A stretch of 41,184 nt of DNA from Candidatus Eremiobacterota bacterium (GCA_019235885.1 JAFAKB010000007.1:1-41184), one strand, 5' to 3'; counted from the stretch's first letter, positions 18,858-33,474 are shown. Made by a program: numbers and translations. The notes: generated by a model not told the origin, from the letters alone.

Positions 18858-20849
18858 CTACGGCGCCGGTGAAGCCGGCGCGCTCGTACGCGCTGCGGCG
18901 GGGGTCGCGCGCGGCGGCAGCGTCGTCCCCGGCGGAAGCGTCGGCAGCGGCCGCGCCGTCGGGATCGCCGGAAGCGGAGGGCCGGGCGAAACGTTCGGCG
19001 CGCCGGGCGTGACGACGTGCGGGGTGACGGTGATGATCAGCTCGTTGCGCTGGCGGTTCAGCTCTTCGTTGCGGAAGGCGCGGCCGAGGAGCGGCAGATC
19101 GCCGAGCAGCGGGATCTTGCTCTCGGTGCGCGTCGTCGTGTCTTGAATCAGCCCGCCGATCACCAGCGTCTGGTCTTCGCGCATCGCGACCGTGGTCTGC
19201 GTGTCGCGCGTCGCGATCTGCGGGATCCCGTTCGAGATTCCCGCCAAGCTGTTCACCGTCGGGTGCAGCGCGACGGTGATGAAGCCGTCGGCGTTGACCA
19301 CCGGCGTGATGTCGAGGGTCACGCCCGTTTGAAACGTCTGCAGCTGCGTGGTCGCGACGGTCCCCGTTCCGCCGCCGGTGGTGGTGAGGATCGCGATGTT
19401 GTCGCCGGCGCGGATGGTCGCGGTGCGACCCGAGATCGTCGTGATGCGCGGGTCGGCCAGGACGCGGCCTTTGCCGTTCTGGATCAGCAGGTTCAGGTTC
19501 AGGCCGAACGAGATCGGCGTGCGGCTGAACTGCTGCAGGCGGATGAACGGCGGCGGCGTCCCGCCGTCCGGTGAGGACGGCGGGACCTCGCCGAACGTGC
19601 TGGTGATCACCGGCGCGGTGAAGCTCAGCCCCAGGTTGCGCGCGGCGGTCTCGTCGACTTCGAGAATCTCGGTGTCGAGCACGACCAGCTTCTGCTCGAC
19701 GTCGAGCTGGTCGATCAAGCTCTTCGCGAGCCGGATCGAGTACGGGCTTCCCGTCAGCACGAGCTGCGTGCCGTTCGGCGGCACGGTGATCCGCAGATCC
19801 GGCGGGGTTCCTTGCAGCGCTTGGGTCACCGTCGTCGCGATGTCGGTCGCCGACGACGACGGCGCGCCGTTGAGCCCGGGCGCCGCCGCTTTGAGCGCGA
19901 CGACCTCGATCCCGGCGGCGCCGCCGGCGAGCGACTCGGCGTTCCCGGGCTGCTGCACCGCGACCCCGCCGGCCACGGTGTTGGCCGAATCGAGCTGCGC
20001 GAGCGCGTCGGCGATCCGCTGGTGCTCGGCGCTCGTCGCGAGGACGGACAGCGCGTTGAGCGCGGCGTCGACGGTCACTTGCGCGTCGTGGAACGAGCGC
20101 GCGATCAGATCGCCGGCGGACCGGGCGTCGACGAAGCGCAGCCGGTAGATCTGCGTGTAGCGCACGCCGGCTTGCGGCTGATCGATCGATGCGACCAACG
20201 CCTTCGCCTTCGCGACGTCGTCCGGCGGGCCGCCGAGCACGACGGACTGCCCGGCGACGCTTGCGCGCACGGTGCGAAACTGATGTGCGACCGCGCGCGC
20301 GACGTCGCGCGGCGCGGCCTTCGTCACCCGCACCGCTTCGATGGGACCGGCGGCCGGTGCGGGCGTCGCGAGGCGGCTGTCGACCGTCGCGAGCAGCGTC
20401 TTGATCTGCGCGAGATCGGCCGGACTCGCTTCGATCAGCAGCGTCGCGTTCGGCGCGACCGCGATGCGCGCCGACGGAAACAGCGCTCGCAGTCGCGCCG
20501 CCGTCGCCGGCGCGGATGCGTTGTGAAGCTGGACCGCGTCCGTGGTCGGCTTCGTCGGGTTGCGAACGTCGATCCCTTGCAGCACGACGCGCATCGCGGC
20601 GACGTCGTCGGGCGGCGCGACGACGACCAGCGCGTTAGCGCTCCGATCGACGGTGATCCGCGCGCGCGGGTAGAGCGCGCGCAGCACGCCGGCGGCACGG
20701 CCGGCGGAGATGACTTGCACGCCGAGCACGGCCGGCGGAAAGGTTTTCGGCGGCGGCGGGCCCGCCGCGAGCGTGCTCGCCAGGAGTAGCGCGACGAGCG
20801 CGACGACGTTGATTGAACGGGCTGAACGCGATGACCGGGGCGACAACAC
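18858..20849 (-). CDS. Secretin (GspD/PilQ family outer-membrane channel)
   Basis: The 663-residue protein forms a ring channel in the outer membrane. A signal peptide (VVALVALLLASTLAAG) is followed by several secretin N-domains at about 40-310, a Ser/Gly-rich linker, and the secretin core at about 395-610. The core contains VLADPRITTISGRTATIRAG and the hallmark IPLLGDLPLLGRAF, then a Pro-rich tail that may be disordered. The GTG start has GGAGG about 9 bases upstream. It stands alone, without pilus or type II secretion genes nearby, divergent from the TetR-type regulator. It could be PilQ-like or serve a system encoded elsewhere. Its presence implies an outer membrane. Confidence 0.9.
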   Translation of the reverse strand: MLSPRSSRSARSINVVALVALLLASTLAAGPPPPKTFPPAVLGVQVISAGRAAGVLRALYPRARITVDRSANALVVVAPPDDVAAMRVVLQGIDVRNPTKPTTDAVQLHNASAPATAARLRALFPSARIAVAPNATLLIEASPADLAQIKTLLATVDSRLATPAPAAGPIEAVRVTKAAPRDVARAVAHQFRTVRASVAGQSVVLGGPPDDVAKAKALVASIDQPQAGVRYTQIYRLRFVDARSAGDLIARSFHDAQVTVDAALNALSVLATSAEHQRIADALAQLDSANTVAGGVAVQQPGNAESLAGGAAGIEVVALKAAAPGLNGAPSSSATDIATTVTQALQGTPPDLRITVPPNGTQLVLTGSPYSIRLAKSLIDQLDVEQKLVVLDTEILEVDETAARNLGLSFTAPVITSTFGEVPPSSPDGGTPPPFIRLQQFSRTPISFGLNLNLLIQNGKGRVLADPRITTISGRTATIRAGDNIAILTTTGGGTGTVATTQLQTFQTGVTLDITPVVNADGFITVALHPTVNSLAGISNGIPQIATRDTQTTVAMREDQTLVIGGLIQDTTTRTESKIPLLGDLPLLGRAFRNEELNRQRNELIITVTPHVVTPGAPNVSPGPPLPAIPTARPLPTLPPGTTLPPRATPAAARTSAPASPAP

Positions 20850-21009
20850 CCTGCATTACCTCCGCCCTGCGCCGGCAGGGGACTTCCGTCACGAATTGCA
20901 TACGACCTCTGCGCCGCGCGCGACGCGCTGAAACCCCCGCGTGCTGCACGGCGTTGGAACGAAAAAGCAGGCTCCGACGAGCAATCCTTTCCGGGTGAGG
21001 ACGCTGACG

Positions 21010-21786
21010 GTGACTGATACGGGTGAACGGCTCGGCGCATCGTGCGCCGGCGAACGGGACGTCTTGGCTGCGGCGATCGCCGATCCGGCGACGCCGGACT
21101 ACGCAGTCGTGCGCGCGCTGGCGGCGCTCGGCGGGGAATCGAACGAACGGCTCGCGCGATTTACCGGGATGGGCAGAGAGTTCGTTGTCGAGGTACGGCG
21201 GCGCGCCGCGTGTGACGGCGCCGCCGCCGTGCTGGCCGGCGCGCCGAGCGTCTGCGAGCGCATCTTGGAGTCGGCGACGGAACAGATCGTGGCCAGCGGC
21301 CGCCGTGACGTGGAGATGCGCGCGCTCTGCGCCGCAGCACGCGTGCCGCGCCGCACGCTCTACAATCTGTACTCCTCGAGCACCGACTTGGTTCAAACGT
21401 GCCAACGACGTGCGCAGACGATATGGCGCGCTCGCTTCGAGCAGCGCGTCGTGCGCAGTAGCACCGACGCGCGCGGACGGCTGTTCGCCGTCGTCGACGC
21501 GATCGACGCCTGGGTCGGCTCGACGCGGTTCCGCGCCGATCTGCTCCTCGTCGCGCGGCCGTCGCTCGCGAGCGAGCTGCGCGACGACGACCTGCGCGAG
21601 CACTTGGCCGAGATCGAACGCTTCGCGACCGCGCTCGCCGCCGACGCACGCGTGCGCGGGCCGCACGCGTTCGGCGCGTTCGTCGCGACCAGCGTCGCGG
21701 GCGCGAGCGCGTGGTTCGACCGCCGCGCCGCGGCGCGCACGGCGAGCGTCGCGTTCGTCGAGCGCTCGACCGGCCTCGTGCGCTGA
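21010..21786 (+). CDS. TetR-type transcriptional regulator with N-terminal extension
   Basis: The 258-residue protein has a helix-turn-helix at about 85-130 (ALCAAARVPRRTLYNLYSSS), matching the TetR pattern in which Y-x-x-Y ends the recognition helix. About 80 residues precede the DNA-binding domain, which is unusual because TetR proteins normally begin with it. The C-terminal 130 residues would form the ligand and dimer domain. GTG 21010 with GAGGA upstream is preferred; GTG 20941 is also in frame. It is divergent from the secretin and 134 bases upstream of a secreted-protein gene, with a perfect palindrome in that gap, so it may regulate either side. Confidence 0.78.
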   Translation: MTDTGERLGASCAGERDVLAAAIADPATPDYAVVRALAALGGESNERLARFTGMGREFVVEVRRRAACDGAAAVLAGAPSVCERILESATEQIVASGRRDVEMRALCAAARVPRRTLYNLYSSSTDLVQTCQRRAQTIWRARFEQRVVRSSTDARGRLFAVVDAIDAWVGSTRFRADLLLVARPSLASELRDDDLREHLAEIERFATALAADARVRGPHAFGAFVATSVAGASAWFDRRAAARTASVAFVERSTGLVR

Positions 21787-21793
21787 AGCGTTC

Positions 21794-21809
21794 TGGCACA
21801 CGTGTGCCA
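21794..21809. promoter_or_regulatory. Perfect 16-bp palindrome, likely operator
   Basis: TGGCACACGTGTGCCA is a perfect palindrome 8 bases after the stop of the TetR-type gene and 112 bases before the next start. Length and symmetry fit a dimeric regulator site. There is no T tract, and the zero-loop centre makes a terminator unlikely. Binding by the adjacent regulator is inferred. Confidence 0.55.
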
Positions 21810-21920
21810 ACTTCGGGCCCGTAGGATATTGCGATTTCTGACCAGATTGGGGCATCATAAAGTTCGCTCGACGACGTCCCGCACACGCGCGGGCTCGGCG
21901 AGGTCGGAAGTGAAGGTGTG

Positions 21921-22379
21921 ATGTTCCGACGATCGCGCGGCGCCGCTGGGGTCGCCGCGGTATCGGCTGCGCTCGCGACGGCGATCGGACTCCCTGCGCC
22001 GGCGAATCCCGTCGTCAGCGTTCGCATCGGCAACGCATCCTCCACGTTCGACCTCGCCTACGCCGCGAGCGCCTCGAGTCTGGGCGGGTTCGTCACCTCG
22101 GAGAACGCTCCGCTGGCGACGATCCCGCACGGAACCGGTGACTCGTACGCGGTCACCTCGGCAAGCCCGCGTGCGATCGCCGGCGCGCTGATCTACCGCG
22201 TCGCCGGCGAGCCGACTCGCGAGTGCACGTTTCGTTACACGCTCTCGTACGCCGGTACGAAGTTCGTCGTCACGGTCGATGCGCGCGCGAGTTGGACCGG
22301 TCCGGTGCGCTGCACGGCGGCGGCGTCCGCGCTCGAGCGGACCAAAGGCGATTTCACGGTGACCTTCACCATGCAGTGA
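21921..22379 (+). CDS. Small secreted protein, related to the next gene
   Basis: The 152-residue precursor has a signal peptide (GVAAVSAALATAIGLPAPANP) and a mature part of about 125 residues with alternating beta-type sequence and two cysteines, in RECTFRY and VRCTAA. The pattern from the first to the second cysteine resembles that of the next gene, so the two are probable distant paralogues. ATG 21921 with GAAGG upstream is chosen; the GTG immediately before it is in frame. No catalytic motif is visible. A secreted beta-sandwich binding or matrix protein is possible but unproven. Confidence 0.7.
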   Translation: MFRRSRGAAGVAAVSAALATAIGLPAPANPVVSVRIGNASSTFDLAYAASASSLGGFVTSENAPLATIPHGTGDSYAVTSASPRAIAGALIYRVAGEPTRECTFRYTLSYAGTKFVVTVDARASWTGPVRCTAAASALERTKGDFTVTFTMQ

Positions 22380-22419
22380 GCGGCGCCGTACGAGCGACCA
22401 CAAACAAGGAGAAGAAGAG

Positions 22420-22896
22420 ATGAACCGAGTCCAAGTCCTGTCGGCGCTCGCAGCGCTGGCAGTCGGCGGAGCATTGGCCGCCAGCACCGCGCCGGCCGCG
22501 GCGTACACCAACGTCGACGTCTCGTTCGCGGTGAAGAACAACGACGGATCAGCCAGCATGATTCGCACGTCGTCGCTTCCGAGCGGCGTGAGCGGGCTTC
22601 CCAACCCTGCCAAGTCCGTGCCGCCCGGCGGCACGGACCCGTCGAGCGGGTTCGCGACGTTTTCGGCGACATACCCGGGCGCCGGTCGCTCGGTGTCGGT
22701 ATCCTTGACGTACGCGAACGCGCTGGACCAGTCCAGTGCCTGCACGTACATCATCAAGGTGACCGAGAACAGCACCACGTCGTTCACGCTCCACTTCGAC
22801 ACGAGCGATTCGACGCGGTGCCCCGTACCGGGCGACAAGTCGAACAGCAACGGCCAGTTCACGGATCAGACGTACCTCTTGAACTGGCAGACGTAG
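22420..22896 (+). CDS. Small secreted protein, related to the previous gene
   Basis: The 158-residue precursor has a textbook signal peptide (VLSALAALAVGGALAAS, cleavage near APAAA-Y) and a strong Shine-Dalgarno AGGAGA before ATG 22420. The mature part is Ser/Thr-rich and beta-type, with cysteines in SACTYIIKV and TRCPVPG. These align by eye with the CTF and RCT positions of the upstream protein. The gene is 40 bases after its neighbour and ends at a large hairpin, so the pair is probably one transcript. Function unknown; I recognise no family. Confidence 0.75.
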   Translation: MNRVQVLSALAALAVGGALAASTAPAAAYTNVDVSFAVKNNDGSASMIRTSSLPSGVSGLPNPAKSVPPGGTDPSSGFATFSATYPGAGRSVSVSLTYANALDQSSACTYIIKVTENSTTSFTLHFDTSDSTRCPVPGDKSNSNGQFTDQTYLLNWQT

Positions 22897-22908
22897 CGCC
22901 GGAACGAC

Positions 22909-22940
22909 CGCGCGGGTGGATGCCGGCATCCGCCCGCGCG
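22909..22940. terminator. Large bidirectional hairpin between convergent genes
   Basis: The 16-base arms 22909-22924 and 22925-22940 pair throughout with a single G-U pair and no free loop except what the centre (GCCGGC) must open. It lies between the convergent stops at 22896 and 22961. No T tract follows, so termination relies on stem strength. Confidence 0.7.
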
Positions 22941-22960
22941 CGCCGGATGCGCCGCCCCGT

Positions 22961-25900
22961 TCAGTACGAATACGGCTGCACGCTGGTGCTGAAGATGAAA
23001 AATGAGTCGTACAACTCTTGTCCCATCGCGACGCCGGTTCGCGTCGTGCCGTTGACGCCGTTGAACACTTGTGAGGGGTCGTCGAAGCCCGAGTCGAACA
23101 GCCCGGGGATCGTCTTGGTGAGCCGTCCGCTTTCGTCGTACTCGTTCAGGCAGACGCGGGCGTTGAGATCGAACGTCCCGATCAGCGTGGGACACCACAT
23201 CGATCGCTGCAGGACGAGGTGGTTGACCGGGTCGATCCCGATCGTCGGTGAGTCGCCGCCCAGCAGCGACGGAAAGCCGTGGAAGGTTTGCTCGACCCCG
23301 AGCACGTGTTGGAAGACGCGCGTGGTCCCGCCCGACGAGAGGTCGAGCAGGGTGAGCTCCGAGGTGAAGCGGTCGTGGCCCAGGCCGGGCGGGCTGCTGT
23401 GACAGCCGGTCGCGATCGCAGCGAGATGCGCCGGCGGATCGAGCGCCAACCCGTAGCCCTGGCCCTGCAGCACGCCGGCGCCGATCGGTAGGGCGCGAAT
23501 CGACGACGTCCCGGTCGCGAAGTCGACCGTCAGCAGTTGCGGAGACTGCTGGTCGCAGGTCAAGGAACCGTCCTCGACCAGCATGTACGCGCGGTCGCCG
23601 ACGGGATCGTACGCGAACGTCTTCAGGCCCGCGAAGTCGAAGTTCGCGCCGAGCTGCGCGGTGACGTCGATTCCCGGGGAGAACCCGCTACCGGTCGTGA
23701 CGTCGCCGCGCGTAACGGTGAACGCGCCGGTGAGCACGTCCATCGCGATGTACGCCGAGCGCGCCGGCGCCGAGTTGAGCCCCACACCGAAGACGAACGC
23801 GGTGGCGGAGAGGCTTCCCGCCGGGAAGCCGAACTGCGCGAACGGCGCCGACGGCGGTGAGGCGCGAAAATAGTCCAGCGTCATCGGATCGGGCGCGTCG
23901 ACCGCGACCGCTACGTCGTTCTGCACGACGGGGTACGTGTCGTGATTCGGCGTCGTGAACGCGATCGCCGTCGGAGAGACCGCCCCTTGCTGGAGATCGA
24001 ACGGTTCGAGCGGGTAGAAGCTCGAGCCGGTCGCCGGCGACCCGACGCCGCCGAATTCGACCAGGAGGCCGTCGGTGCCGTTCGGGTTGAGGTAGAGGTC
24101 GGAGAGCGGGAGCCCGAAATCCGTCGTGAGGCCGTCGTACTGAACCGTCCCCGCATCGCTCGCCTCGGCGAGGACGCCGGTGCCGTTCGTTGCCAAGACG
24201 CGCACGTTCACCGTCGTCGTGGCCGGGATTCCGGCGGCGACCGGATCGATCCTCACCGAGCCGCTGGTGCCGCTCGCGCGCACGCTGTAGATCGAGCCGC
24301 TGATCGCGCCGTCGTCGTCGAGCTCGTTCCCGTTCGGGTTGCGAAACGTGTTGAACCCGGTTCGCACCGGATACCCGAAGAAGCTCGGCCCCGGCGCGGG
24401 CGCCGCGATCTCGACGATCGCACCGGTCGCTCCCGGCACCGGCGTGACGTCGAATGCCACGCTGAACGGCGAGGTGTACGGAACCTCGATGGTACGCGAA
24501 GGCGAGCCGGCGCCCGCGCGCGACAACAGCGGCGGCGCGGGACGGGCCGTTCCGGCGTCGACGCGGGTGAACGCGAGATCCGATACGTCGGAGAGCGGCG
24601 CGTTCGGGTTGAGATTGATTCCGAGCGTATACGTTCCGGCTCCGTCGAGCGCCGACACCGGAACGTTGACCGTCCCGCGCGGCGCCGAGAGCGGCGCCGT
24701 GTAAAACGGCGAGTCGCCGACGTTGAAGAACGGCGTCGTCGCCATCCCGGGCAACGACACCTCGAGCGTCGGGTTGCCGAGGAGCGCCGCGGGATAGCCG
24801 GTGAGATCGTAGCTGACGGGAATGGTCGGCCCGCTGACGACCGGCGGCACCTTTGGAGCCAGCACCAGCCGCGAGCTCGCCGCCGGCGGTCCGAAGGTCA
24901 GTTGAAAGGTCGATTCGGCGAGCACGTGCAGTCCGGCCGACGCGCGATACGTCAGCGAGAGCGTGCGCGAGGCGCCCGGCGTGAGCGGCACGCCGGCGGC
25001 GGCGAAGAGCTGCGCCGGAAGCAGTCGGACGTATGGCGTCGTCGCGATCACCCGGGACGGCTGTCCCGCGACGGTAAGGCGGTAAGCCGCGTTCGGCGGG
25101 ATCCCTTCCCAGTCGGGCGCGATGGTGATGTACGAGTTCAAATCCGCCGCGGTGTCGCTTCCCGGGTAGCTGATGCCGTTCGGGTTGCCGAGGCGCGTGT
25201 ACGGCCCGTCAAGGCGAATGTACGCGGGGTCCAGCGCGGCGACGAACACCGCGTCGTTCACGTAACGCGTGTTGGCGAAGGCGATGTACGAGCCGGAGCG
25301 GCGTCCCTGCACGGCGACGCGCGCGATGGCGGGTTGGACGGGCTTGCCGGCGGCGGCGAGCAGCTGCTCGACCGCGCGGCGGACGCTGACTTGCGGGCCG
25401 ATGCGCAGCGGAACGTCGGACTGCGGCGGGTTCGCGACCGGCACGCCGGTCGCGACGAGCAGATCACGCACTTGCGTCGCGCTCGCGAGCGGGTGTCCGG
25501 TGAGCCGTGCAACTTGGATCGCGACCGCGGCCGCGGCGGCGATCTCCGGCGCGGAGGCCGAGGTTCCACCGGCGTTCTCGAGCCCGACCGCGTCGTACTT
25601 TCCGCCGGTGAGAAAGAGCGCGTCGACGTTGTCGCCGGGCGCCGAGAGGTTCACCCGCGTTCCGAAGCCGCTGGAGAATCCCAGCGTGCCGTTGTAGCGC
25701 GTTTCCGGAAACGCTTTGACGTTGGCGAGGCTCGCCAGCGCGGGATCTTGCGGGTTCGCGGAGGCGATGTCGTCGAGCGTCGTCGCGCCGGCGTCGATCG
25801 CGCCGCTGTCGGGGTCTACCGACGGTCCGGTCGTGAACGAGACGTCGTCGATCGTCGTCGTGCCGGTCGTGCCGGCGTTCGTGGGCGCGCTGCCGCCCGA

Positions 25901-27544
25901 CGGGCCGATCGCCGCGCTCGTGAACGTCCGCGTGCCGTCGTTCGCGGCGATGCAGACGACGACGTTCGAGGCGACGATCCCGGCGATGATGCTTCGGCTG
26001 AGCGGATCGTCTTCCAAGTAGCGGCTCGGGAAGCCGTATCCGTCGGCGGAAAAGCCGATGCTCGCGGTGATGACGTCGGGCGCGGGCTGCTGGCGCGCCG
26101 CGCCGATCATCGCGGCCAGCGTGTCGCTCGTCGCGATCAGGCCGTTCGTTCCGGCGGGGGCGACCCAGCGGTACGACGCGCCGGGCGCGATGCCGAGCAA
26201 GTCGACGCCGAACGGCGCGGTTTCGCCGGGGCGCTGCACGTTGTCGGGGAGCGGCGCCATCACCGAGAAGTCGAGGCCGACCTCGACCAGCTGCGGATCG
26301 ACGTTGCACACTTCGCCGGTCGCGGACAGGTTGCCGCGCGCGTCGGCAACCCACACCGGGATCAGCGGGAGCGACGGCAGATCCAAGTAGCGCTGGCCGC
26401 CGACCAGGTGCGTCGTCGGACCGCCGTTGCTTACCGCGGCGTTGCACGGATCGTTCGGGTCGGCGAGCGCCGATGCGTCGTCGGCGTCGCCGAGCCCGAC
26501 GTTCGTGACGATCGTGCCGGTGCCGGGGAGCTGGTTGAAGCGCGTGCCGATCTCGTCGAGCGCTGCGACCGCGTCGACGGCGGGCGCGTTCAGCAGCGCC
26601 TGCAGGTCGAACGCGATCGCGGTGTTCGTCGGCAGCTGCGCTGCGGCGAGCGAGCTCGCTCCCGAACGCGCCGCGGAACGGACCGCGCGGCCGAACGTGT
26701 GCGTCGAACGGCGGAAGCCGGCGATCTCGCGCAGCGCTTCAGCCGGAAGCGGATGCCGCTCGGCGATCATCGATCCGACCGCGTAATCCGGTGAAACGTA
26801 CGCGACGCCGGGAAGCGCGCGCAGCTTGCGGACCGCCGCTTCCACCGATGCGCCGGCGACGTGCAGCGCGAACGCGTTCTCGAACGGCAACAGCGCGTGA
26901 TGCGTGCGCGCCTCTGCGCGGGCGCGCAGCGAGCCGAGCGTACCGCGGTCGAGCCGGCCGAAGAGGCGGTCGACGCGGTCGACGCCGAGCTTCGAGAGCA
27001 CCGCGTTCGTGCGGACGTCGCTGGTGAACGCGTGCGGCGTGACCGCGCGCCGGGCGAGGATCGCGCGTTGCAGCTCGCGCGCCGCCGCCGGCGTGAGCGC
27101 ATCGCTGTCGCGCGCGACGCCGATCGCCGGCGCGAACGCGACGATGACGCGCTGCGGCACGAAGCGCTGCGGCGGGTGCTCCAGATCGAACGCGATCTGC
27201 CGCCGCACGAAGTCCGGAACCCGATCGTCCAAGGGCCCGTAGCGCTGCAGCGAAAGCCATTGCTGCGAACGCGCCGGCAGCGTCGGCAGGCTGCCTCGCG
27301 AGCGCGGAACTCTGAGCGCGCCCGTTTTCGCGAAGCTGCTCTGCGGAGCGGTGAGCAGCGTCCGCCCGTCGGTGTAGACCGTCGCCAGCCGTCCGTCACG
27401 CAGCCGCATGCTGAACGCGACGGTGTTCGAGGGCACCGGCGGGCGCGCCGAGACGACCCGGTGGTACGGACGGGCGTCGCCGCTGCTCGCGAGCAGGCCC
27501 AGCGAGAGCGCGACCGCCGCCGCGGCACAGGCTTTAGAAAACAT
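22961..27544 (-). CDS. Very large secreted subtilase-like (S8) protein, possibly catalytically altered
   Basis: The 1527-residue precursor has a signal peptide at 1-24, a propeptide-like part ending VEAAVRKLRALPGVAYVSPD (about 234-253), a subtilase-like domain to about residue 710 and about 800 residues of beta-rich domains. The final 250 contain propeller-like units such as GYGLALDPPAHLAAIA. The serine motif GGTSASAP (Ser662) and the oxyanion asparagine in CIAAND (535) are clear. The DTG aspartate motif and HGTxVAG histidine motif are not: the equivalent region reads TIVTNVGLGDADD and later DLLGIAPGASYR. It may be a divergent enzyme or a binding protein on a protease scaffold. ATG 27544 overlaps the upstream lipoprotein gene by 11 bases, so it is the last gene of that operon. 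Confidence 0.82.
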   Translation of the reverse strand: MFSKACAAAAVALSLGLLASSGDARPYHRVVSARPPVPSNTVAFSMRLRDGRLATVYTDGRTLLTAPQSSFAKTGALRVPRSRGSLPTLPARSQQWLSLQRYGPLDDRVPDFVRRQIAFDLEHPPQRFVPQRVIVAFAPAIGVARDSDALTPAAARELQRAILARRAVTPHAFTSDVRTNAVLSKLGVDRVDRLFGRLDRGTLGSLRARAEARTHHALLPFENAFALHVAGASVEAAVRKLRALPGVAYVSPDYAVGSMIAERHPLPAEALREIAGFRRSTHTFGRAVRSAARSGASSLAAAQLPTNTAIAFDLQALLNAPAVDAVAALDEIGTRFNQLPGTGTIVTNVGLGDADDASALADPNDPCNAAVSNGGPTTHLVGGQRYLDLPSLPLIPVWVADARGNLSATGEVCNVDPQLVEVGLDFSVMAPLPDNVQRPGETAPFGVDLLGIAPGASYRWVAPAGTNGLIATSDTLAAMIGAARQQPAPDVITASIGFSADGYGFPSRYLEDDPLSRSIIAGIVASNVVVCIAANDGTRTFTSAAIGPSGGSAPTNAGTTGTTTIDDVSFTTGPSVDPDSGAIDAGATTLDDIASANPQDPALASLANVKAFPETRYNGTLGFSSGFGTRVNLSAPGDNVDALFLTGGKYDAVGLENAGGTSASAPEIAAAAAVAIQVARLTGHPLASATQVRDLLVATGVPVANPPQSDVPLRIGPQVSVRRAVEQLLAAAGKPVQPAIARVAVQGRRSGSYIAFANTRYVNDAVFVAALDPAYIRLDGPYTRLGNPNGISYPGSDTAADLNSYITIAPDWEGIPPNAAYRLTVAGQPSRVIATTPYVRLLPAQLFAAAGVPLTPGASRTLSLTYRASAGLHVLAESTFQLTFGPPAASSRLVLAPKVPPVVSGPTIPVSYDLTGYPAALLGNPTLEVSLPGMATTPFFNVGDSPFYTAPLSAPRGTVNVPVSALDGAGTYTLGINLNPNAPLSDVSDLAFTRVDAGTARPAPPLLSRAGAGSPSRTIEVPYTSPFSVAFDVTPVPGATGAIVEIAAPAPGPSFFGYPVRTGFNTFRNPNGNELDDDGAISGSIYSVRASGTSGSVRIDPVAAGIPATTTVNVRVLATNGTGVLAEASDAGTVQYDGLTTDFGLPLSDLYLNPNGTDGLLVEFGGVGSPATGSSFYPLEPFDLQQGAVSPTAIAFTTPNHDTYPVVQNDVAVAVDAPDPMTLDYFRASPPSAPFAQFGFPAGSLSATAFVFGVGLNSAPARSAYIAMDVLTGAFTVTRGDVTTGSGFSPGIDVTAQLGANFDFAGLKTFAYDPVGDRAYMLVEDGSLTCDQQSPQLLTVDFATGTSSIRALPIGAGVLQGQGYGLALDPPAHLAAIATGCHSSPPGLGHDRFTSELTLLDLSSGGTTRVFQHVLGVEQTFHGFPSLLGGDSPTIGIDPVNHLVLQRSMWCPTLIGTFDLNARVCLNEYDESGRLTKTIPGLFDSGFDDPSQVFNGVNGTTRTGVAMGQELYDSFFIFSTSVQPYSY

Positions 27545-29174
27545 CGCAGACTCCTTGAAGCTGGGTCAGGCCGAGCGAGGCCGGCGTCGGAAACGAGCGG
27601 CTCGCGTCGGGCGCGCTGAGATCGTCGAGGTACGCGGCGATCGCGTTGCTCGAGCGCTCAACGATCTGCGGCGCGCCGCTGTTCGGGTCGACGGCGATTC
27701 CGAACGGCGCGTTCGCGTCGGTGACGGAAGCGACGGCCGTGCCGAAGGCGTCGAACGCCGCGATCCCGTTCGCGCTCGTCGCGTAGAGCTGCGCGCTCGT
27801 CTGCGGAGATCCGTTCGGGCCGACCGGCGGCGCGTACGCGAGCGCAACCGGCGCCGCGCTCACCGCGCGCGACCCGAGCGAACCGCCGTTCTCGTTGAAG
27901 AACGCGAGCTTCGGCGTCGCCGACGCGTTGCCGACGACGATCCGGTTCAGCGCGCCGAACGGCCCGGCGGCGACGAACGCGATCCCGCCGGCGCTCGGCG
28001 CGGCGAACGCGGGCGGCGCACCGCCGTTCGGCGGGCCGCCGCTCGGTGCGAACACCGTCACGCCGCCGCTGCCGCTCGCGTAGACGTCGCCGTCGTTCGG
28101 ATCGTAGGCGACGCCGTTCACGCCCGCGACCGCAGGCGCGGTGAAGCCGTTCGCCGGCGCGCCGTTCTCGTCGAAGGCGAGCACCTTGCCGAGCCCCGCG
28201 TCGGCGACGAAGATGACGCGGTCGTCCGCGTCGTACGCGAGCGCGACGGGGTTTGCGAGCCCGCCGAACGCGCCCGGCGGCAGCGGCAACGCGGTGCCGT
28301 GCGCGTCGTAGCGCACGATCGCCGGCGCGCCGCCGTTCGCGTAGGCGGCGTAGACGGCGCTCGTCACATCGACGATCGCCGACGAGGTCGCCAGGTTGCC
28401 GTTCGCGTCCTTCGCGGTCGCGACGAGCGAGGTCGGATACGTCGTGCCGTTCGGCGCGAGCGCCTGCACCGCGAACTGATCGCTGGTGCCGCCGACCGGC
28501 GTGACGCCCAGGATTCCGGTCGCGCGCACGTTCGGCGCCAGCGTTATCGCGACCGGCGCGTCGGGCTGCACGATCACGTTGCCGCCCGCGTCGAGCGGTG
28601 CGACCGAGAACGTCGCCGGCGCGCGGCCGACCAGCTCCCATGCCGGCGGACTGGTGCCGGCCTGCGCGATGACGTTCGGCTGGCTCGGGAGCGGGCCGAT
28701 GCGCACGCTCGCGACCGTGCCGATCACCGTCGCGTTCAGCGTGTTGGTCGCGTTCGCGACGATCGTCTGCGCGACGCGCACGCGCCCCAGCTCGTTGCCC
28801 GCCGCGCTCGTCTCGCCCGGTGTCTGCGGCGCGTCGTACAGCGAGATGACGAAGACGTCGGCGCCGGCCGGTGCGTCGATCGCGATCGTCGACGTTCCGC
28901 CGCCGGCCGGCGCGTTCGCGAAGGTGACCGGGCCCGGCGCGGCCGCGTCGGGGTTCACCTCGACGATCACGCTCGCCGCGGACGGCGAGATGAACGCCGC
29001 GTGGCGGTGCGAGCGCGCCGTGCGGTCGGGCCAGTGCATGCTGAACGCGACGCTGACCCGCGCGCCGGACGCCGCCCGATGCGGCGCGGGAACCGCCCGC
29101 GCACCGCCCGCGCATCCGCTCGCGGTGAGCGCGAGCGCGAAGGAGGCGGCGACCGCGCGAACCGGCGCCGTCAT
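27534..29174 (-). CDS. Lipoprotein with NHL-like beta-propeller repeats
   Basis: The 546-residue precursor has a lipoprotein signal (AVAASFALALTASGCAGG) with the lipidated cysteine near residue 19. Beta-sandwich-type sequence follows to about residue 290, then at least five repeats of the NHL/SMP-30 kind, seen as PVALAYDADDRVIFVAD, VNGVAYDPNDGDVYAS and PFGIAVDPNSG. Such propellers bind proteins or sugars on the cell surface. ATG 29174 forms an ATGA overlap with the upstream lipoprotein stop, and the 3' end overlaps the subtilase-like gene. The propeller units resemble those near the C-terminus of that protein, which supports a shared role. Confidence 0.8.
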   Translation of the reverse strand: MTAPVRAVAASFALALTASGCAGGARAVPAPHRAASGARVSVAFSMHWPDRTARSHRHAAFISPSAASVIVEVNPDAAAPGPVTFANAPAGGGTSTIAIDAPAGADVFVISLYDAPQTPGETSAAGNELGRVRVAQTIVANATNTLNATVIGTVASVRIGPLPSQPNVIAQAGTSPPAWELVGRAPATFSVAPLDAGGNVIVQPDAPVAITLAPNVRATGILGVTPVGGTSDQFAVQALAPNGTTYPTSLVATAKDANGNLATSSAIVDVTSAVYAAYANGGAPAIVRYDAHGTALPLPPGAFGGLANPVALAYDADDRVIFVADAGLGKVLAFDENGAPANGFTAPAVAGVNGVAYDPNDGDVYASGSGGVTVFAPSGGPPNGGAPPAFAAPSAGGIAFVAAGPFGALNRIVVGNASATPKLAFFNENGGSLGSRAVSAAPVALAYAPPVGPNGSPQTSAQLYATSANGIAAFDAFGTAVASVTDANAPFGIAVDPNSGAPQIVERSSNAIAAYLDDLSAPDASRSFPTPASLGLTQLQGVCDVF

Positions 29175-29599
29175 TGCAGCGCCCCTTGCGTGATCGTCAC
29201 GCCGACCGCGAGGCTCGCGCGCTGCCCGTAGCTGTCGTAGAAGGGAAGGCTGCACGCGCCCGCGCTCCGCGCGGTGATCGTGAACGTCGCGGGCACCGCC
29301 GCCGCGAGCGCGGGTGTGACGCTCGCGACGGCGGTGCACCCGCTCGCGTCCGGCGCGACGAGGCCGGCGTAGGCCGGCTCGTTCGCCGTGACGGTCGCGG
29401 TTTGGCCGGCGGCGGTGAACGCCAGCGCGCTCTGCGAGAGCGTCAGCGCGCCGCCGGGCGTCGGCGCCGGCGAAGGCGTCGGTGAAGGTGTCGGCGCGAC
29501 GAAAGCGCTCGGCGGCGAGCCGCCGCCGCCACCGCCGCCGCAGCCGCCGCTCGCACACGCGAGCGCGAGAACGCTACCGATAACCGAAAGCCGTCGCAT
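29171..29599 (-). CDS. Small lipoprotein with glycine/proline linker and beta-sandwich domain
   Basis: The 142-residue precursor starts MRRLSVIGSVLALACASGGC, with two candidate lipidation cysteines, followed by a Gly run, a Pro-Ser/Thr-rich linker (TPSPTPSPAPTPGG) and a single domain of about 90 residues. The domain begins LTLSQSALAFTAAGQTATVT, a common bacterial Ig-like or cadherin-like pattern, and has two cysteines that could pair. ATG 29599 is preferred over an in-frame ATG four codons upstream. It is first in a coupled three-gene unit with the propeller lipoprotein and the subtilase-like protein. Probably a surface-exposed anchor or binding partner; inferred. Confidence 0.75.
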   Translation of the reverse strand: MRRLSVIGSVLALACASGGCGGGGGGGSPPSAFVAPTPSPTPSPAPTPGGALTLSQSALAFTAAGQTATVTANEPAYAGLVAPDASGCTAVASVTPALAAAVPATFTITARSAGACSLPFYDSYGQRASLAVGVTITQGALQ

Positions 29600-29707
29600 C
29601 TCGTACACCATCGTGCGCCGCTACGTGAACCGCCGCGCGTCCCACTTGTGACCGCGGCGTGCAACGTGCGCATTTGGCCGAAAGGAACGATGAGGTTGCG
29701 AAGGCGT

Positions 29708-31279
29708 TCAGTTCACGCCGAGCCGGCGCGCGATCTCGTTCGCTTCGCGCAACGACTCGTAGCTGCCGTACCGCTCGAGCAGCGGCAACGCTTCGCGCAC
29801 GTGGCGCTGCGCCTCGCGGACGCGGTGCTGCCCGAGCGCGATCCGGGCCAGGTGGCGCGCCGCGGCGCCGTGCAGCCGGCCGTTGCCGAGCTCCTGCGCG
29901 CCGGTTCGAATCGCGCACGCGAGCGCGCGCGCTTCATCGTAGCGGCCGAGATGCAGCGCGAAGACGGCGCGCCGGCAGCGCGCGAGCATCGCCTCGGCGC
30001 TGCGCGGCGCGGCGAACCGCTCCGCCAGCAGCGCGGCGTCCGTTCCGCGCAGCGGATCCGCTTCGTTCTGCGCGACCAGGCGCGCCGCGGTCGCGAACGA
30101 GAGCGACATCGTGCGCCGCTCGGCGGCGCCGAACATTCCGAGCAGCAGCTCGCAGATGCCGTCGGGCCGGCGCAGCACGGGAACCTCGCTCCCGATCCGC
30201 TCGGCCCGCACCGGCAGCAGCCGGCGCGCATGGCCGCTGCGCGCCGCCAGCTGCTCGACCGCGAGCAATCCGGCCCGGCCGTTGAGCGGCGGAAGGCGCA
30301 GCACGGCGAGCATCACGTCGGCGTGCATCAGCGCGAACCGTTCTTTCGCGCGCGAGGGGTCGAGCGAGCCGAGCACCGCCTGCGCGCGCCGGATCGCGTC
30401 GCGGCCGTGCTCCACGTCGCCGGTCTCCCAGCGCTGCATCGCGTACGCGGCGAGCGCGCGCACCAGCAGCGCGCGCCGCGCTTCGTCGGGATCGAGCGCC
30501 GCGCCGGCGCGCGCGACGACGAGCGGCGGCTCCATCGCGAAGCCGCCGGCCGCGCCGGTGTGGCGGCGCAGCGACCACGCGACGAAGTCGATCTGCTCGC
30601 GCGCGGTGCTCACGACGCCGGCGGCGAGCTCGCGGCGGCGCAGCGCGAGGATCGCGTCGGCTTCGGCGAGCCGCTGCGCGCACGCCTCGAAGCGCGCGGC
30701 GTCGAGCTCGGCTTCGGCGGCCAGGCAGAGCGCTTCGATGCGCCGCTCCGGCAGCGGCGCGGCGGCCGCCATCGCCTCGCACGCGGCCAGCGCGAGCGCG
30801 GACTGACCGCACTCGTGCAGCTCGACCGCGTGCGCGAGCCGCAGCGCGGCCAGATCGACCGCGCCGGCCGGCGCGCGCGGCGTTGCGGCGACGCGTTCGA
30901 ACGCGTGCAGAAACGCATCGTGCGCGGCGCGCCGCTCGCGCCGCAGCTGCCGCTCGGAGAGCCCGAGCTCGGCGGCGACGACTGCCGGCGCGGCGTTGTC
31001 GAGCTCGCAGCGCAGCAGCGCGGCGCAGATGCGGCCGACGCCGACGTGACCGCGTTCGGCGGCCTGCTCGCGGCAGCGCGCCAGCGCGAGCTGGACCGCG
31101 CCGCGCAGGGACTCCAGCGCCTGCCGGTCGGCGGCGAAATCGCCGCGCCGCAGCGCGCCGGCGGCGGCGAAGTACGGCTGCGCCAGCGGGTTGCGCCGCA
31201 GCGCGCACGCATCGTCGAGATTGCGCAACAGATGCCGTGACGCGCAATACGGCGAGCGCGCGGGATCAGCGCGCGGCAT
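29708..31279 (-). CDS. Transcriptional regulator with helix-turn-helix and TPR-like C-terminus
   Basis: The 523-residue cytoplasmic protein has a helix-turn-helix near residues 97-123 (VAAELGLSERQLRRERRAA), similar to sigma-region-4 or MalT-like DNA-binding helices. About 390 helix-rich residues follow with repeated Ala/Leu patterns (ALCLAAEAELDAARFEACAQ and similar), as in tetratricopeptide-type sensor domains. No ATPase motif is present. It lies 108 bases upstream of the lipoprotein/subtilase operon on the same strand and just downstream of the M3 peptidase, so it is a natural candidate to control that block. ATG 31279 opens the frame. Confidence 0.72.
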   Translation of the reverse strand: MPRADPARSPYCASRHLLRNLDDACALRRNPLAQPYFAAAGALRRGDFAADRQALESLRGAVQLALARCREQAAERGHVGVGRICAALLRCELDNAAPAVVAAELGLSERQLRRERRAAHDAFLHAFERVAATPRAPAGAVDLAALRLAHAVELHECGQSALALAACEAMAAAAPLPERRIEALCLAAEAELDAARFEACAQRLAEADAILALRRRELAAGVVSTAREQIDFVAWSLRRHTGAAGGFAMEPPLVVARAGAALDPDEARRALLVRALAAYAMQRWETGDVEHGRDAIRRAQAVLGSLDPSRAKERFALMHADVMLAVLRLPPLNGRAGLLAVEQLAARSGHARRLLPVRAERIGSEVPVLRRPDGICELLLGMFGAAERRTMSLSFATAARLVAQNEADPLRGTDAALLAERFAAPRSAEAMLARCRRAVFALHLGRYDEARALACAIRTGAQELGNGRLHGAAARHLARIALGQHRVREAQRHVREALPLLERYGSYESLREANEIARRLGVN

Positions 31280-31361
31280 CGTCGCCGCGCGGCGGGTGCA
31301 AGCGGTCCAGAGCCGTTCGACCTCCGCGAAGAGCGTCGAGCGGTGCCGCCTACACCCGCCT

Positions 31362-31386
31362 CTAGCGCGCTACGCTAGCGCGCTAG
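31362..31386. promoter_or_regulatory. Paired TAGCGCGCTA palindromes forming an 11-bp inverted repeat
   Basis: TAGCGCGCTA occurs at 31363-31372 and again at 31376-31385. Each copy is itself a palindrome, and together they form arms CTAGCGCGCTA/TAGCGCGCTAG around a 3-base centre. The site lies 25 bases after the M3 peptidase stop and about 80 bases before the regulator start. No T tract is present in either direction. A two-dimer operator for the regulator gene, or a strong stem after the peptidase gene, are both possible. Confidence 0.5.
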
Positions 31387-31410
31387 TGCGGCGGAGCGCA
31401 ATACCGAAGT

Positions 31411-33474
31411 TCAGCGCGCCGACGTTTGCGGCGGCGCGATGCCGAGCTCGCGGTAGAACGCGTTCGGATTCATTGGACGACCAAGGAAATTCCGCACTTC
31501 TTGGTCCGGTTCGACTAAACGCGCCGGCGCAAGGATGTCGTTGCGGTACGCCGCGCCGGCCACCGGGTTGGTGAGCCCTTGCGCCTTGAAGCGCGTGAAC
31601 ATGTCCTGCGCGTAGACCTTCGACCACAGATAGCCGTAGTAGCCCGCATCGTAGCCGCCCATCAGGTGGCCGAACTCCGACTGCGGGTGCGTCCCGGAGA
31701 CGTACTGGTTCGGCGTGGTCTGCGCGACCGTCGCGGCCCATACTGCGGTCGTGTCAACCGGCGGCTTCATCGTGTGGTACTTCATGTCGACGGTCGCGTA
31801 CATGATCTGGCCCGTCGTCTGCAGCGCGTAGTGCACGTAGCGCGCGGCGATCATCTTCTGGACCAACGCGTCAGGCAAAGGTTGTCCGGTGGTGACGTTC
31901 GAGCTGACCCGCTTGAGGATCGCCGGATCCCAGGCGAAGTTCTCGAGCATCTGCGAGGGCGCCTCGATGAAGTCTTGGCGGAAGCCGTTGGTCAGCGTCT
32001 CGTACGGCTCGTTCGCCAGCAGCGCCGCCATGCAGTGGCCGAACTCGTGGAAGAAGACCACGACGTCGCCGTGCTGCAGCAGTGCCGGCTTGCCGGGCGC
32101 CGGGAGCGGCCAGTTGCCGACGATCGCGCTCTCCGCCAGCCGCACGCTGCCGTCGGGCATCACGCGGCGCGGGATGATCGGGAAGTTCGCGAAGTGGTCG
32201 TACTTGCCGGGCCGCGGGAAGAGGTCGAGGTAGAAGCGCCCCAGCGGCTTGCCCGTCGCGGTGTCGGCGACGTCGAACGCCTCCACCGAGGGGTGCCATA
32301 CCGGAACGTTCACCTTCGTGAACTTCACCCCGAGCAGCTGCTGGTAGATTCCGAGCACGCTGTCGACCACGTGCTGGACCGGGAAGTACTGCTTGATCTC
32401 GTTCTGGTCGACGGAGTATTTCGTCTTGGCGAGTTGATTTTCGTAGTACGTTTGATCCCACTGCTCGAGCTGCGTGCCGGGGAACTGCGCGGTCTTCAGC
32501 GCCGCGTCCTCGGCGCGCTCCTGGCGCGCCTTCGGCAGAATCGCCGTGTCGATCTGGGAGAGGAAGCTCTCGACGCGCTGCGGCGACCCGGCCATCCGGT
32601 CGGCGAGCACGTACGCGGCCCAGGTCGGATATCCGAGCAGGTGCGCGAGCCGGTCGCGGGTCGCGATCGCGTTCTGCAGCAGCTGCACGTTGGCGTCGCC
32701 GCCGCGGTTGTTGTAGGCGACGTAGAACGCCTTGCGCGCCGCTTCGTCGGTCTCGTTCTGCATGAACGGGCCGATCGTCGACTCGTTGACCGGCACGGTG
32801 TAGCCGCCGTCGGCGTCTTTCTTGAGCGACGCGGCGACGAAGTCGGCCGGGAGCGACTGTGCCTGCGCGGCGGTGATCGCGATCGTCGAGGCGTCGTTGC
32901 CCAAGTTCGCGTTGTACTTGTTCTGCAGGTCGTTCAGCGACTGCGAGAGGCTGACGAACTCTTTGCGCTGCGCGTCGGGCAGCCCGGCGCCGCTGCGCTT
33001 GAGCGCGGTGAGCCAGAGCTGGGTGAGCTTTTGCTGCGCGGCGCCTTTCGCCGTCCCGCTGGCCTGCGCGTCGGCGAGCGCGCGGTACAGTTCCGGACGC
33101 GCCGAGATCTCGCTGAGCACGTTGCCCGCATCGGTCGCGCACTTCAGCGAGGCGTCGCGCACCTTCGGATCGGTCGAGACGTTGTAGAGGAAGCCTTGCG
33201 CGGCCAGATCGTCGTTGAAATCGGCCGAGGCGGTTTCGAGCGGGAGGACGACGGTCTCGAAGGTGCGGCGGCCGCGGACGCGCGCGATCGCGTCGGCGCG
33301 GCGCTTCATCGTCGCGATCGAGGCGGCGCACGACGACCCGATCGCCGCGGGGGTGAGCGACCAGTCGATCGCGAGGGCGGAAGCGGCGGATTTCGCCGCC
33401 GCGCCGAGCGGCAGGGTTGCCAAGAGCGCGGCGCTCAGCCCAACGGCCGAGCTACGTGAGAATACGGAGTGCAT
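31411..33474 (-). CDS. Exported M3-family zinc oligopeptidase
   Basis: The 687-residue enzyme cleaves short peptides. The zinc motif HEFGH is at 476-480, with the third ligand Glu504 in DFIEAPSQ. The substrate-binding tyrosine segment AGYYGYLWSKVYAQ near the C-terminus is typical of the thimet/oligopeptidase A group. Unlike OpdA or Dcp, it carries an N-terminal signal peptide (VGLSAALLATLPLGAAAKS), so it works in the periplasm or outside. ATG 33474 is divergent from the secreted-protein gene at 33528, with 53 bases between. It may trim peptides produced by other exported enzymes. Confidence 0.92.
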   Translation of the reverse strand: MHSVFSRSSAVGLSAALLATLPLGAAAKSAASALAIDWSLTPAAIGSSCAASIATMKRRADAIARVRGRRTFETVVLPLETASADFNDDLAAQGFLYNVSTDPKVRDASLKCATDAGNVLSEISARPELYRALADAQASGTAKGAAQQKLTQLWLTALKRSGAGLPDAQRKEFVSLSQSLNDLQNKYNANLGNDASTIAITAAQAQSLPADFVAASLKKDADGGYTVPVNESTIGPFMQNETDEAARKAFYVAYNNRGGDANVQLLQNAIATRDRLAHLLGYPTWAAYVLADRMAGSPQRVESFLSQIDTAILPKARQERAEDAALKTAQFPGTQLEQWDQTYYENQLAKTKYSVDQNEIKQYFPVQHVVDSVLGIYQQLLGVKFTKVNVPVWHPSVEAFDVADTATGKPLGRFYLDLFPRPGKYDHFANFPIIPRRVMPDGSVRLAESAIVGNWPLPAPGKPALLQHGDVVVFFHEFGHCMAALLANEPYETLTNGFRQDFIEAPSQMLENFAWDPAILKRVSSNVTTGQPLPDALVQKMIAARYVHYALQTTGQIMYATVDMKYHTMKPPVDTTAVWAATVAQTTPNQYVSGTHPQSEFGHLMGGYDAGYYGYLWSKVYAQDMFTRFKAQGLTNPVAGAAYRNDILAPARLVEPDQEVRNFLGRPMNPNAFYRELGIAPPQTSAR

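What the first reader, a model, noticed from the sequence alone, without database searches (positions are those of the whole stretch)
21010..33474. Block of exported proteins with two regulators: a candidate undescribed surface system
On the minus strand an exported M3 peptidase, an HTH/TPR regulator, a small lipoprotein, a propeller lipoprotein and a 1527-residue subtilase-like protein follow one another, and the last three are coupled by ATGA or short overlaps. They converge on a TetR-type regulator and two related small secreted proteins. The propeller units of the lipoprotein resemble units at the C-terminus of the subtilase-like protein. Proteolysis, peptide sensing or surface adhesion are possible themes. 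That these genes form one system is inference from order and coupling.
Basis: partly seen in the sequence, partly recalled or inferred. Interest (0 to 1): 0.65.

Follow-up and report, generated by a model that had tools for sequence, protein, structure and literature searches.

The report
Secretin cassette with giant subtilase-like exoprotein
This is a conserved eight-gene cassette, found only in one branch of a soil-bacterial genus, that joins its own outer-membrane export pore to a giant secreted protein resembling a protein-cutting enzyme but without the usual catalytic histidine, together with two lipoproteins, two small secreted proteins and two regulators; it matters because pores of the same kind sit beside giant Rhs toxins throughout this bacterial family.

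Summary
The block is real, but its boundaries are different. In five related genomes the order secretin–TetR–sec1–sec2–(S8-like)–propeller lipoprotein–small lipoprotein–HTH/TPR is conserved, as far as their contigs reach. A complete genome of the same genus lacks all eight genes between the same two flanking genes. So the unit is about 18858-31279. The overlaps small/propeller/S8-like are conserved. A palindrome in the TetR–sec1 gap is conserved in all six carriers. The 1527-aa protein is S8-type by profile and keeps the Ser and oxyanion-Asn motifs, but no ortholog has a catalytic-His motif; an invariant E421-x-x-L-D425 recalls S53 peptidases. The secretin belongs to an Eremiobacterota subfamily of which 21 of 34 other loci examined carry a giant Rhs protein within 2.5 kb. 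Best reading: a dedicated outer-membrane pore with its own giant exoprotein and lipoproteins, a variant of a family-wide secretin–giant-exoprotein pairing. Export through the pore is inferred, not shown. Residual proteolytic activity is undecided.

The parts
18858..20849 (-). Orphan secretin, 663 aa (Secretin domain plus five Secretin_N repeats; no detectable N0/STN domain).
   Evidence: PF00263 E 4.9e-44, PF03958 E 4.7e-33; GspD/PilQ hits in PDB; island clade 96/98; no N-terminal STN-like segment
20941..21786 (+). TetR-like regulator (start may be 21010); TetR HTH preceded by a further predicted HTH
   Evidence: TetR_N E 2.7e-4, 8.6e-5 in an ortholog; HTH_29 in orthologs
21793..21810 (.). Conserved inverted repeat about 110 bp upstream of sec1 (core TGGCACACGTGTGCCA at 21794-21809), candidate operator
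   Evidence: kept in all six carriers, exact in G000, G003, G004, G008, variant in G001 and G007; one exact copy in the G000 genome
21921..22379 (+). sec1, small exported protein (152 aa from ATG)
   Evidence: signal peptide read from sequence; alignment A3, 55-59% identity to the window
22420..22896 (+). sec2, small exported protein (158 aa)
   Evidence: signal peptide read from sequence; alignment A4, 46-51% identity to the window
22961..27544 (-). Giant exported S8-like protein, 1527 aa: signal peptide, fervidolysin-like prodomain, S8-like domain (about 305-733), long C-terminal region
   Evidence: PF00082 E 1.8e-8, PF22148 E 2.6e-4; S8 Ser and Asn motifs intact, no His motif, E421xxLD425 invariant
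27534..29174 (-). Propeller-type lipoprotein, 546 aa; overlaps S8-like gene by 11 bp
   Evidence: paralogue L081 is Vgb_lyase PF24684 E 2.6e-65
29171..29599 (-). Small lipoprotein, 142 aa; ATGA overlap with propeller gene
   Evidence: homologues adjoin propeller paralogues at other loci
29708..31279 (-). HTH/TPR regulator, 523 aa
   Evidence: present in the same carriers
31411..33474 (-). NOT part of the cassette: M3 peptidase, conserved right flank
   Evidence: present at the block-less site in G006

Best explanation
An eight-gene cassette (18858-31279) encodes a T2SS-type orphan secretin and its presumed cargo. The Sec-exported 1527-residue S8-like protein is released or displayed through this dedicated outer-membrane pore. 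It is made in a translationally coupled operon with a small and a propeller lipoprotein, which act at the outer membrane as partners or anchors for it. The HTH/TPR protein would control that operon, and the TetR-like protein would control the convergent sec1-sec2 operon from the palindrome upstream of sec1. It is a variant of a secretin-giant exoprotein pairing seen across the family, in which the usual partner is an Rhs protein. Shown: the gene content, order, joint absence from a complete relative, conserved overlaps, conserved palindrome, secretin relationships and Rhs linkage. Inferred: export of this cargo by this pore, use of pilus or T2SS platform parts encoded elsewhere, the regulatory wiring, and a role in surface contact or competition. 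The S8-like domain lacks a conserved catalytic His motif, so it is either a non-catalytic scaffold or uses an unusual triad.
For: Order conserved in G001, G004, G007, G008 and G003 as far as their contigs reach. Clean block-less site in complete genome G006. Coupled overlaps conserved. Island secretins form one clade, 96/98. Subfamily relatives carry a giant Rhs protein within 2.5 kb in 21 of 34 loci, some in tandem (Pfam in 35, 99), while the four secA-linked copies carry none. Small/propeller pair recurs as tight neighbours at about nine other loci. Palindrome conserved in six genomes inside a diverged spacer. T2SSF platform proteins exist elsewhere in every genome of the genus.
Against: No secretion was tested. 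No inner-membrane platform gene lies in the cassette. The secretin is divergent from TetR and separated from the operon by three genes. No N0 domain was found, which in E. coli GspD is the part that binds the platform protein GspC (PMC3169554). The block-less site comes from one complete genome, and carriers look like one subclade, so shared order may partly be recent common descent. In G004 the secretin was not found and its propeller ortholog (L038) has lost the lipobox Cys.
Confidence: 0.5

Rival explanations
1. Two neighbouring units: the secretin (with TetR, sec1, sec2) and the small-propeller-S8-like operon with its HTH/TPR regulator merely share a variable chromosomal site; the S8-like protein leaves the cell by the general T2SS or stays periplasmic.
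For: The halves are convergent and have separate regulators; the palindrome was found only on the sec1 side; no cargo signal is known.
Against: All eight genes are absent together from G006, and no complete genome was found with only one half.
Confidence: 0.3
2. The S8-like protein is an active surface peptidase with a non-canonical Ser-Glu-Asp arrangement (E421/D425 with S662), and the cassette serves nutrient acquisition.
For: E421xxLD425 sits in an invariant block and resembles the S53 motif found in most S53 controls; Ser and Asn motifs are intact in all five full-length orthologs.
Against: Profile match is to S8, not S53; no Pro-kuma prodomain hit in the Pfam scans; the residue at the oxyanion position is Asn as in S8, not Asp; the E-D segment is separated from the GIAP motif by a longer stretch than known for S53 (own knowledge).
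Confidence: 0.25
3. The cassette is an antagonism system like the Rhs-secretin pairs, with the S8-like or sec proteins acting on neighbouring cells.
For: The same secretin subfamily pairs with Rhs giants; the predation secretin KilC of Myxococcus also lacks N0 (PMC8460266).
Against: No toxin domain and no immunity gene recognised in the cassette.
Confidence: 0.2

Closest known systems
Orphan secretin XqhA with XphA in Pseudomonas aeruginosa (hybrid T2SS; PMC6567927)
   Same: Secretin encoded away from the platform genes and presumed to borrow them.
   Different: Here the secretin lies in a cassette with a giant exoprotein and lipoproteins and has no recognised GspC-like partner gene.
Rhs proteins with signal peptides, >1500 aa, thought to be surface displayed (PMC10433427)
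   Same: Giant Sec-signal exoproteins; in this family they sit beside the same secretin subfamily.
   Different: The island cargo is S8-like with no recognised Rhs repeats or toxin tip.
Secretin KilC of the Myxococcus Kil (Tad-like) killing system (PMC8460266)
   Same: Short secretin lacking N0.
   Different: Kil has ATPase, platform and pilin genes in its clusters (PMC10433427); this cassette has none.
Peptidase family S8 (subtilases; closest PDB by sequence BprV/BprB 3ti7/3ti9)
   Same: Profile match, Ser motif, oxyanion Asn, fervidolysin-like prodomain.
   Different: No catalytic His motif in any ortholog and no match to the strict Asp pattern; 1527 aa with a long unmatched C-terminus.

Membership tests
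Type II secretion system (GspD-based) | Secretin pore domain with N1-type repeats | tested here: met
   PF00263 E 4.9e-44; PF03958 five stretches; GspD in PDB
Type II secretion system (GspD-based) | N0 domain on the secretin | tested here: not met
   The island secretin begins directly with N1-type repeats; the RHS- and secA-linked paralogues of the genus carry an extra N-terminal STN-like segment (STN E 0.003 in L097, weaker elsewhere)
Type II secretion system (GspD-based) | ATPase, platform and pseudopilin genes in the same cluster | tested here: not met
   None recognised in the island; T2SSF proteins only at other loci
Peptidase S8 | Ser motif GTS-x-[SA]-x-P and oxyanion Asn | tested here: met
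   S662 and N535, all five orthologs
Peptidase S8 | Catalytic His motif HG[STM] | tested here: not met
   Absent in all five orthologs; present in most S8 controls from the phylum
Peptidase S8 | Catalytic Asp motif | tested here: inconclusive
   Strict pattern absent, but it also misses many S8 controls; D401 or N348 could occupy the site
Peptidase S53 | Glu-x-x-x-Asp motif | tested here: inconclusive
   E421xxLD425 invariant, but no profile alignment places it there
Peptidase S53 | Pro-kumamolisin prodomain and oxyanion Asp | tested here: not met
   No PF09286 hit in the Pfam scans; Asn at the oxyanion position
TetR family | TetR_N HTH domain above the curated cut-off | tested here: inconclusive
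   21.1 bits in the window and 22.7 in an ortholog against a cut-off of 24
Rhs toxin loci | RHS repeats with variable C-terminal toxin and immunity gene | tested here: not met
   No RHS repeat hit in the S8-like protein

The most novel reading that the evidence does not exclude
Eremiobacterota use solo secretins, each encoded beside one giant Sec-exported protein, as dedicated cargo-specific outer-membrane exits; most serve Rhs giants, and this cassette is a branch in which the cargo has become a His-less subtilase-like protein with a lipoprotein pair.
Probability: 0.35. Interest if true: 0.8.

Novelty: new variant of a known kind. Interest (0 to 1): 0.55.

Why it matters
How large signal-peptide-bearing Rhs and similar giants cross the outer membrane of diderm bacteria is, to my knowledge, unclear; a repeated one-pore-one-giant gene pairing makes this directly testable. 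The cassette also offers a conserved S8-type protein that kept Ser and Asn but has no His motif, a case for either a pseudo-peptidase or an unusual triad.

Tried and rejected
M3 peptidase as a member: rejected, present at the block-less site. Shared propeller units: rejected, E 0.29. S53 membership by profile: rejected. AlphaFold with 5 orthologs: pLDDT 29.8, unusable; with 23 rows including S8 controls: pLDDT 44.4, Foldseek hits are subtilisins, but the alignment itself contained S8 rows, so this is not independent. Sec2 hits to picornavirus VP1 (E 0.0012): treated as spurious. L091, a 'Gemmatimonadetes' contig with the S8-like gene: the HTH/TPR gene is broken at the junction and the genes beyond it do not match the window, read as a chimeric or misbinned contig, not transfer. 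G009:C247, a sister N0-less secretin: its neighbours do not match the cassette profiles, apart from a weak hit of one neighbour to the small lipoprotein. Absence of N0 as island-specific: rejected, secretins of other genera lack it too. Rarity of the palindrome as such: rejected, the window has 12 perfect 16-mers; only its conservation counts.

Full report
Observation. On the minus strand run the M3 peptidase (31411-33474), the HTH/TPR protein (29708-31279), a small lipoprotein (29171-29599), a propeller-type lipoprotein (27534-29174) and a 1527-aa S8-like protein (22961-27544). On the plus strand, converging, lie a TetR-like gene (20941 or 21010-21786) and two small exported proteins (21921-22379 and 22420-22896). 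Small and propeller genes overlap as ATGA; propeller and S8-like genes overlap by 11 bp. The same overlaps occur in the orthologs wherever both genes are on the contig. Signal peptides and lipoboxes were read from the sequence by eye, not with a predictor.

True boundaries. The window is the whole of contig C7 of a 4.5-Mb genome; relatives found by name are Eremiobacterota/WPS-2 MAGs. In G001, G008, G004 and G007 the cassette genes keep the same order and orientation; G004 and G007 have parts of it at contig ends or on a second contig, and G003 has parts of it on two contigs. In G006, a single-contig genome, the left flank gene (window 17756) and its small neighbour are followed by M3, with nothing matching the eight genes between them. 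The S8-like protein was found in 5 of 149 genomes of the phylum, all in this genus. M3 identity to the window is 79-82% in carriers and 75-76% in two genomes in which no S8-like or HTH/TPR gene was found, G006 and G010, so carriers look like one subclade; no species tree was built.

The S8-like protein. Pfam gives Peptidase_S8 (E 1.8e-8) aligned only from profile position 74 on, and a fervidolysin-type prodomain (E 2.6e-4); orthologs behave alike. Against profiles built from S8 and S53 proteins of the same phylum it matches S8 (E 1e-9) and not S53. A motif scan finds the Ser motif GTSASAP/GTSASSP and the Asn motif AANDG in all five orthologs, no His motif, and E421-V-G-L-D425 in an invariant block. 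Catalysis is thus undecided. The C-terminal half has no recognised homologue in Pfam or the PDB, and its claimed similarity to the propeller lipoprotein is not supported.

The secretin. It has the secretin domain and five Secretin_N repeats. RHS- and secA-linked paralogues of the genus carry an extra N-terminal segment resembling the STN/N0 domain which the island copies lack. The tree separates an island clade (96/98) from a clade of Rhs-linked copies and from copies next to secA. Across 34 loci of this subfamily outside the island, 21 have a giant Rhs protein within 2.5 kb, divergent or in tandem (Pfam RHS_repeat and DUF6531). N0-less copies are common in other genera, so that trait is not special to the island. 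The background rate of Rhs genes was not measured.

Lipoproteins and regulators. Homologues of the small lipoprotein lie directly beside propeller-lipoprotein paralogues at about nine other loci, mostly in the order propeller-small, which suggests that the two act together. Between TetR and sec1 the inverted repeat TTGGCAC-N4-GTGCCAA is kept in the carriers, with its first base changed in G000, an altered centre in G001 and altered arms in G007, in a spacer that is otherwise diverged; the exact 16-base core occurs once in the own genome. Its symmetry alone is not rare here. The spacers before the HTH/TPR and small genes also hold conserved blocks, of unknown meaning.

Mechanism. The most likely reading is a dedicated outer-membrane pore with its own giant exoprotein, a lipoprotein pair acting at the outer membrane, and a separately regulated pair of small secreted proteins. 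Which inner-membrane machine drives export is not shown; T2SSF proteins are encoded elsewhere, and Vulcanimicrobium, a cultured member of the phylum, makes type IV pili (PMC9758169). The P. aeruginosa XqhA case shows that a secretin encoded outside a T2SS cluster can form part of a hybrid system (PMC6567927). The papers found with Eremiobacterota and secretin together use the words only in passing, as far as titles and abstracts show.

Verdict. A real, subclade-restricted cassette that is probably a new variant of secretin-dependent export; the family-wide Rhs-secretin pairing found on the way may be the larger result.

Noticed in passing
L077, L078 (G000:C74), L080 (G000:C10), L093, L094, L095, L097, L099, L161-L166, L168, L169, L173-L177: Solo secretins of one subfamily lie beside giant Rhs-repeat proteins (DUF6531 plus RHS repeats; the L078 one ends in an HNH nuclease domain), divergent or in tandem.
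   Followed up: partly
L079, L092, L096: One copy of the same secretin subfamily sits next to what looks like the secA gene in several genomes of the genus, with no Rhs neighbour.
   Followed up: no
L081 (G000:C69:1922-4475) and L017, L019, L023, L024, L031, L033, L035: A small lipoprotein and a propeller lipoprotein recur as neighbours at other loci, mostly in the opposite order.
   Followed up: partly
L091 (PMAE01000024.1): Contig labelled Gemmatimonadetes carries the S8-like and lipoprotein genes next to genes not found in the window, with the HTH/TPR gene broken at the join; probably chimeric or misbinned.
   Followed up: partly
whole genomes: S53 (Pro-kumamolisin) prodomain proteins are abundant in this phylum, up to ten per genome.
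   Followed up: no
window 31280-31410 and 29600-29707: Conserved non-coding blocks (CGGGTGTAGGCG..ACCGCT; CCTTTCGGCCAA) upstream of the HTH/TPR and small lipoprotein genes in the carriers compared.
   Followed up: no
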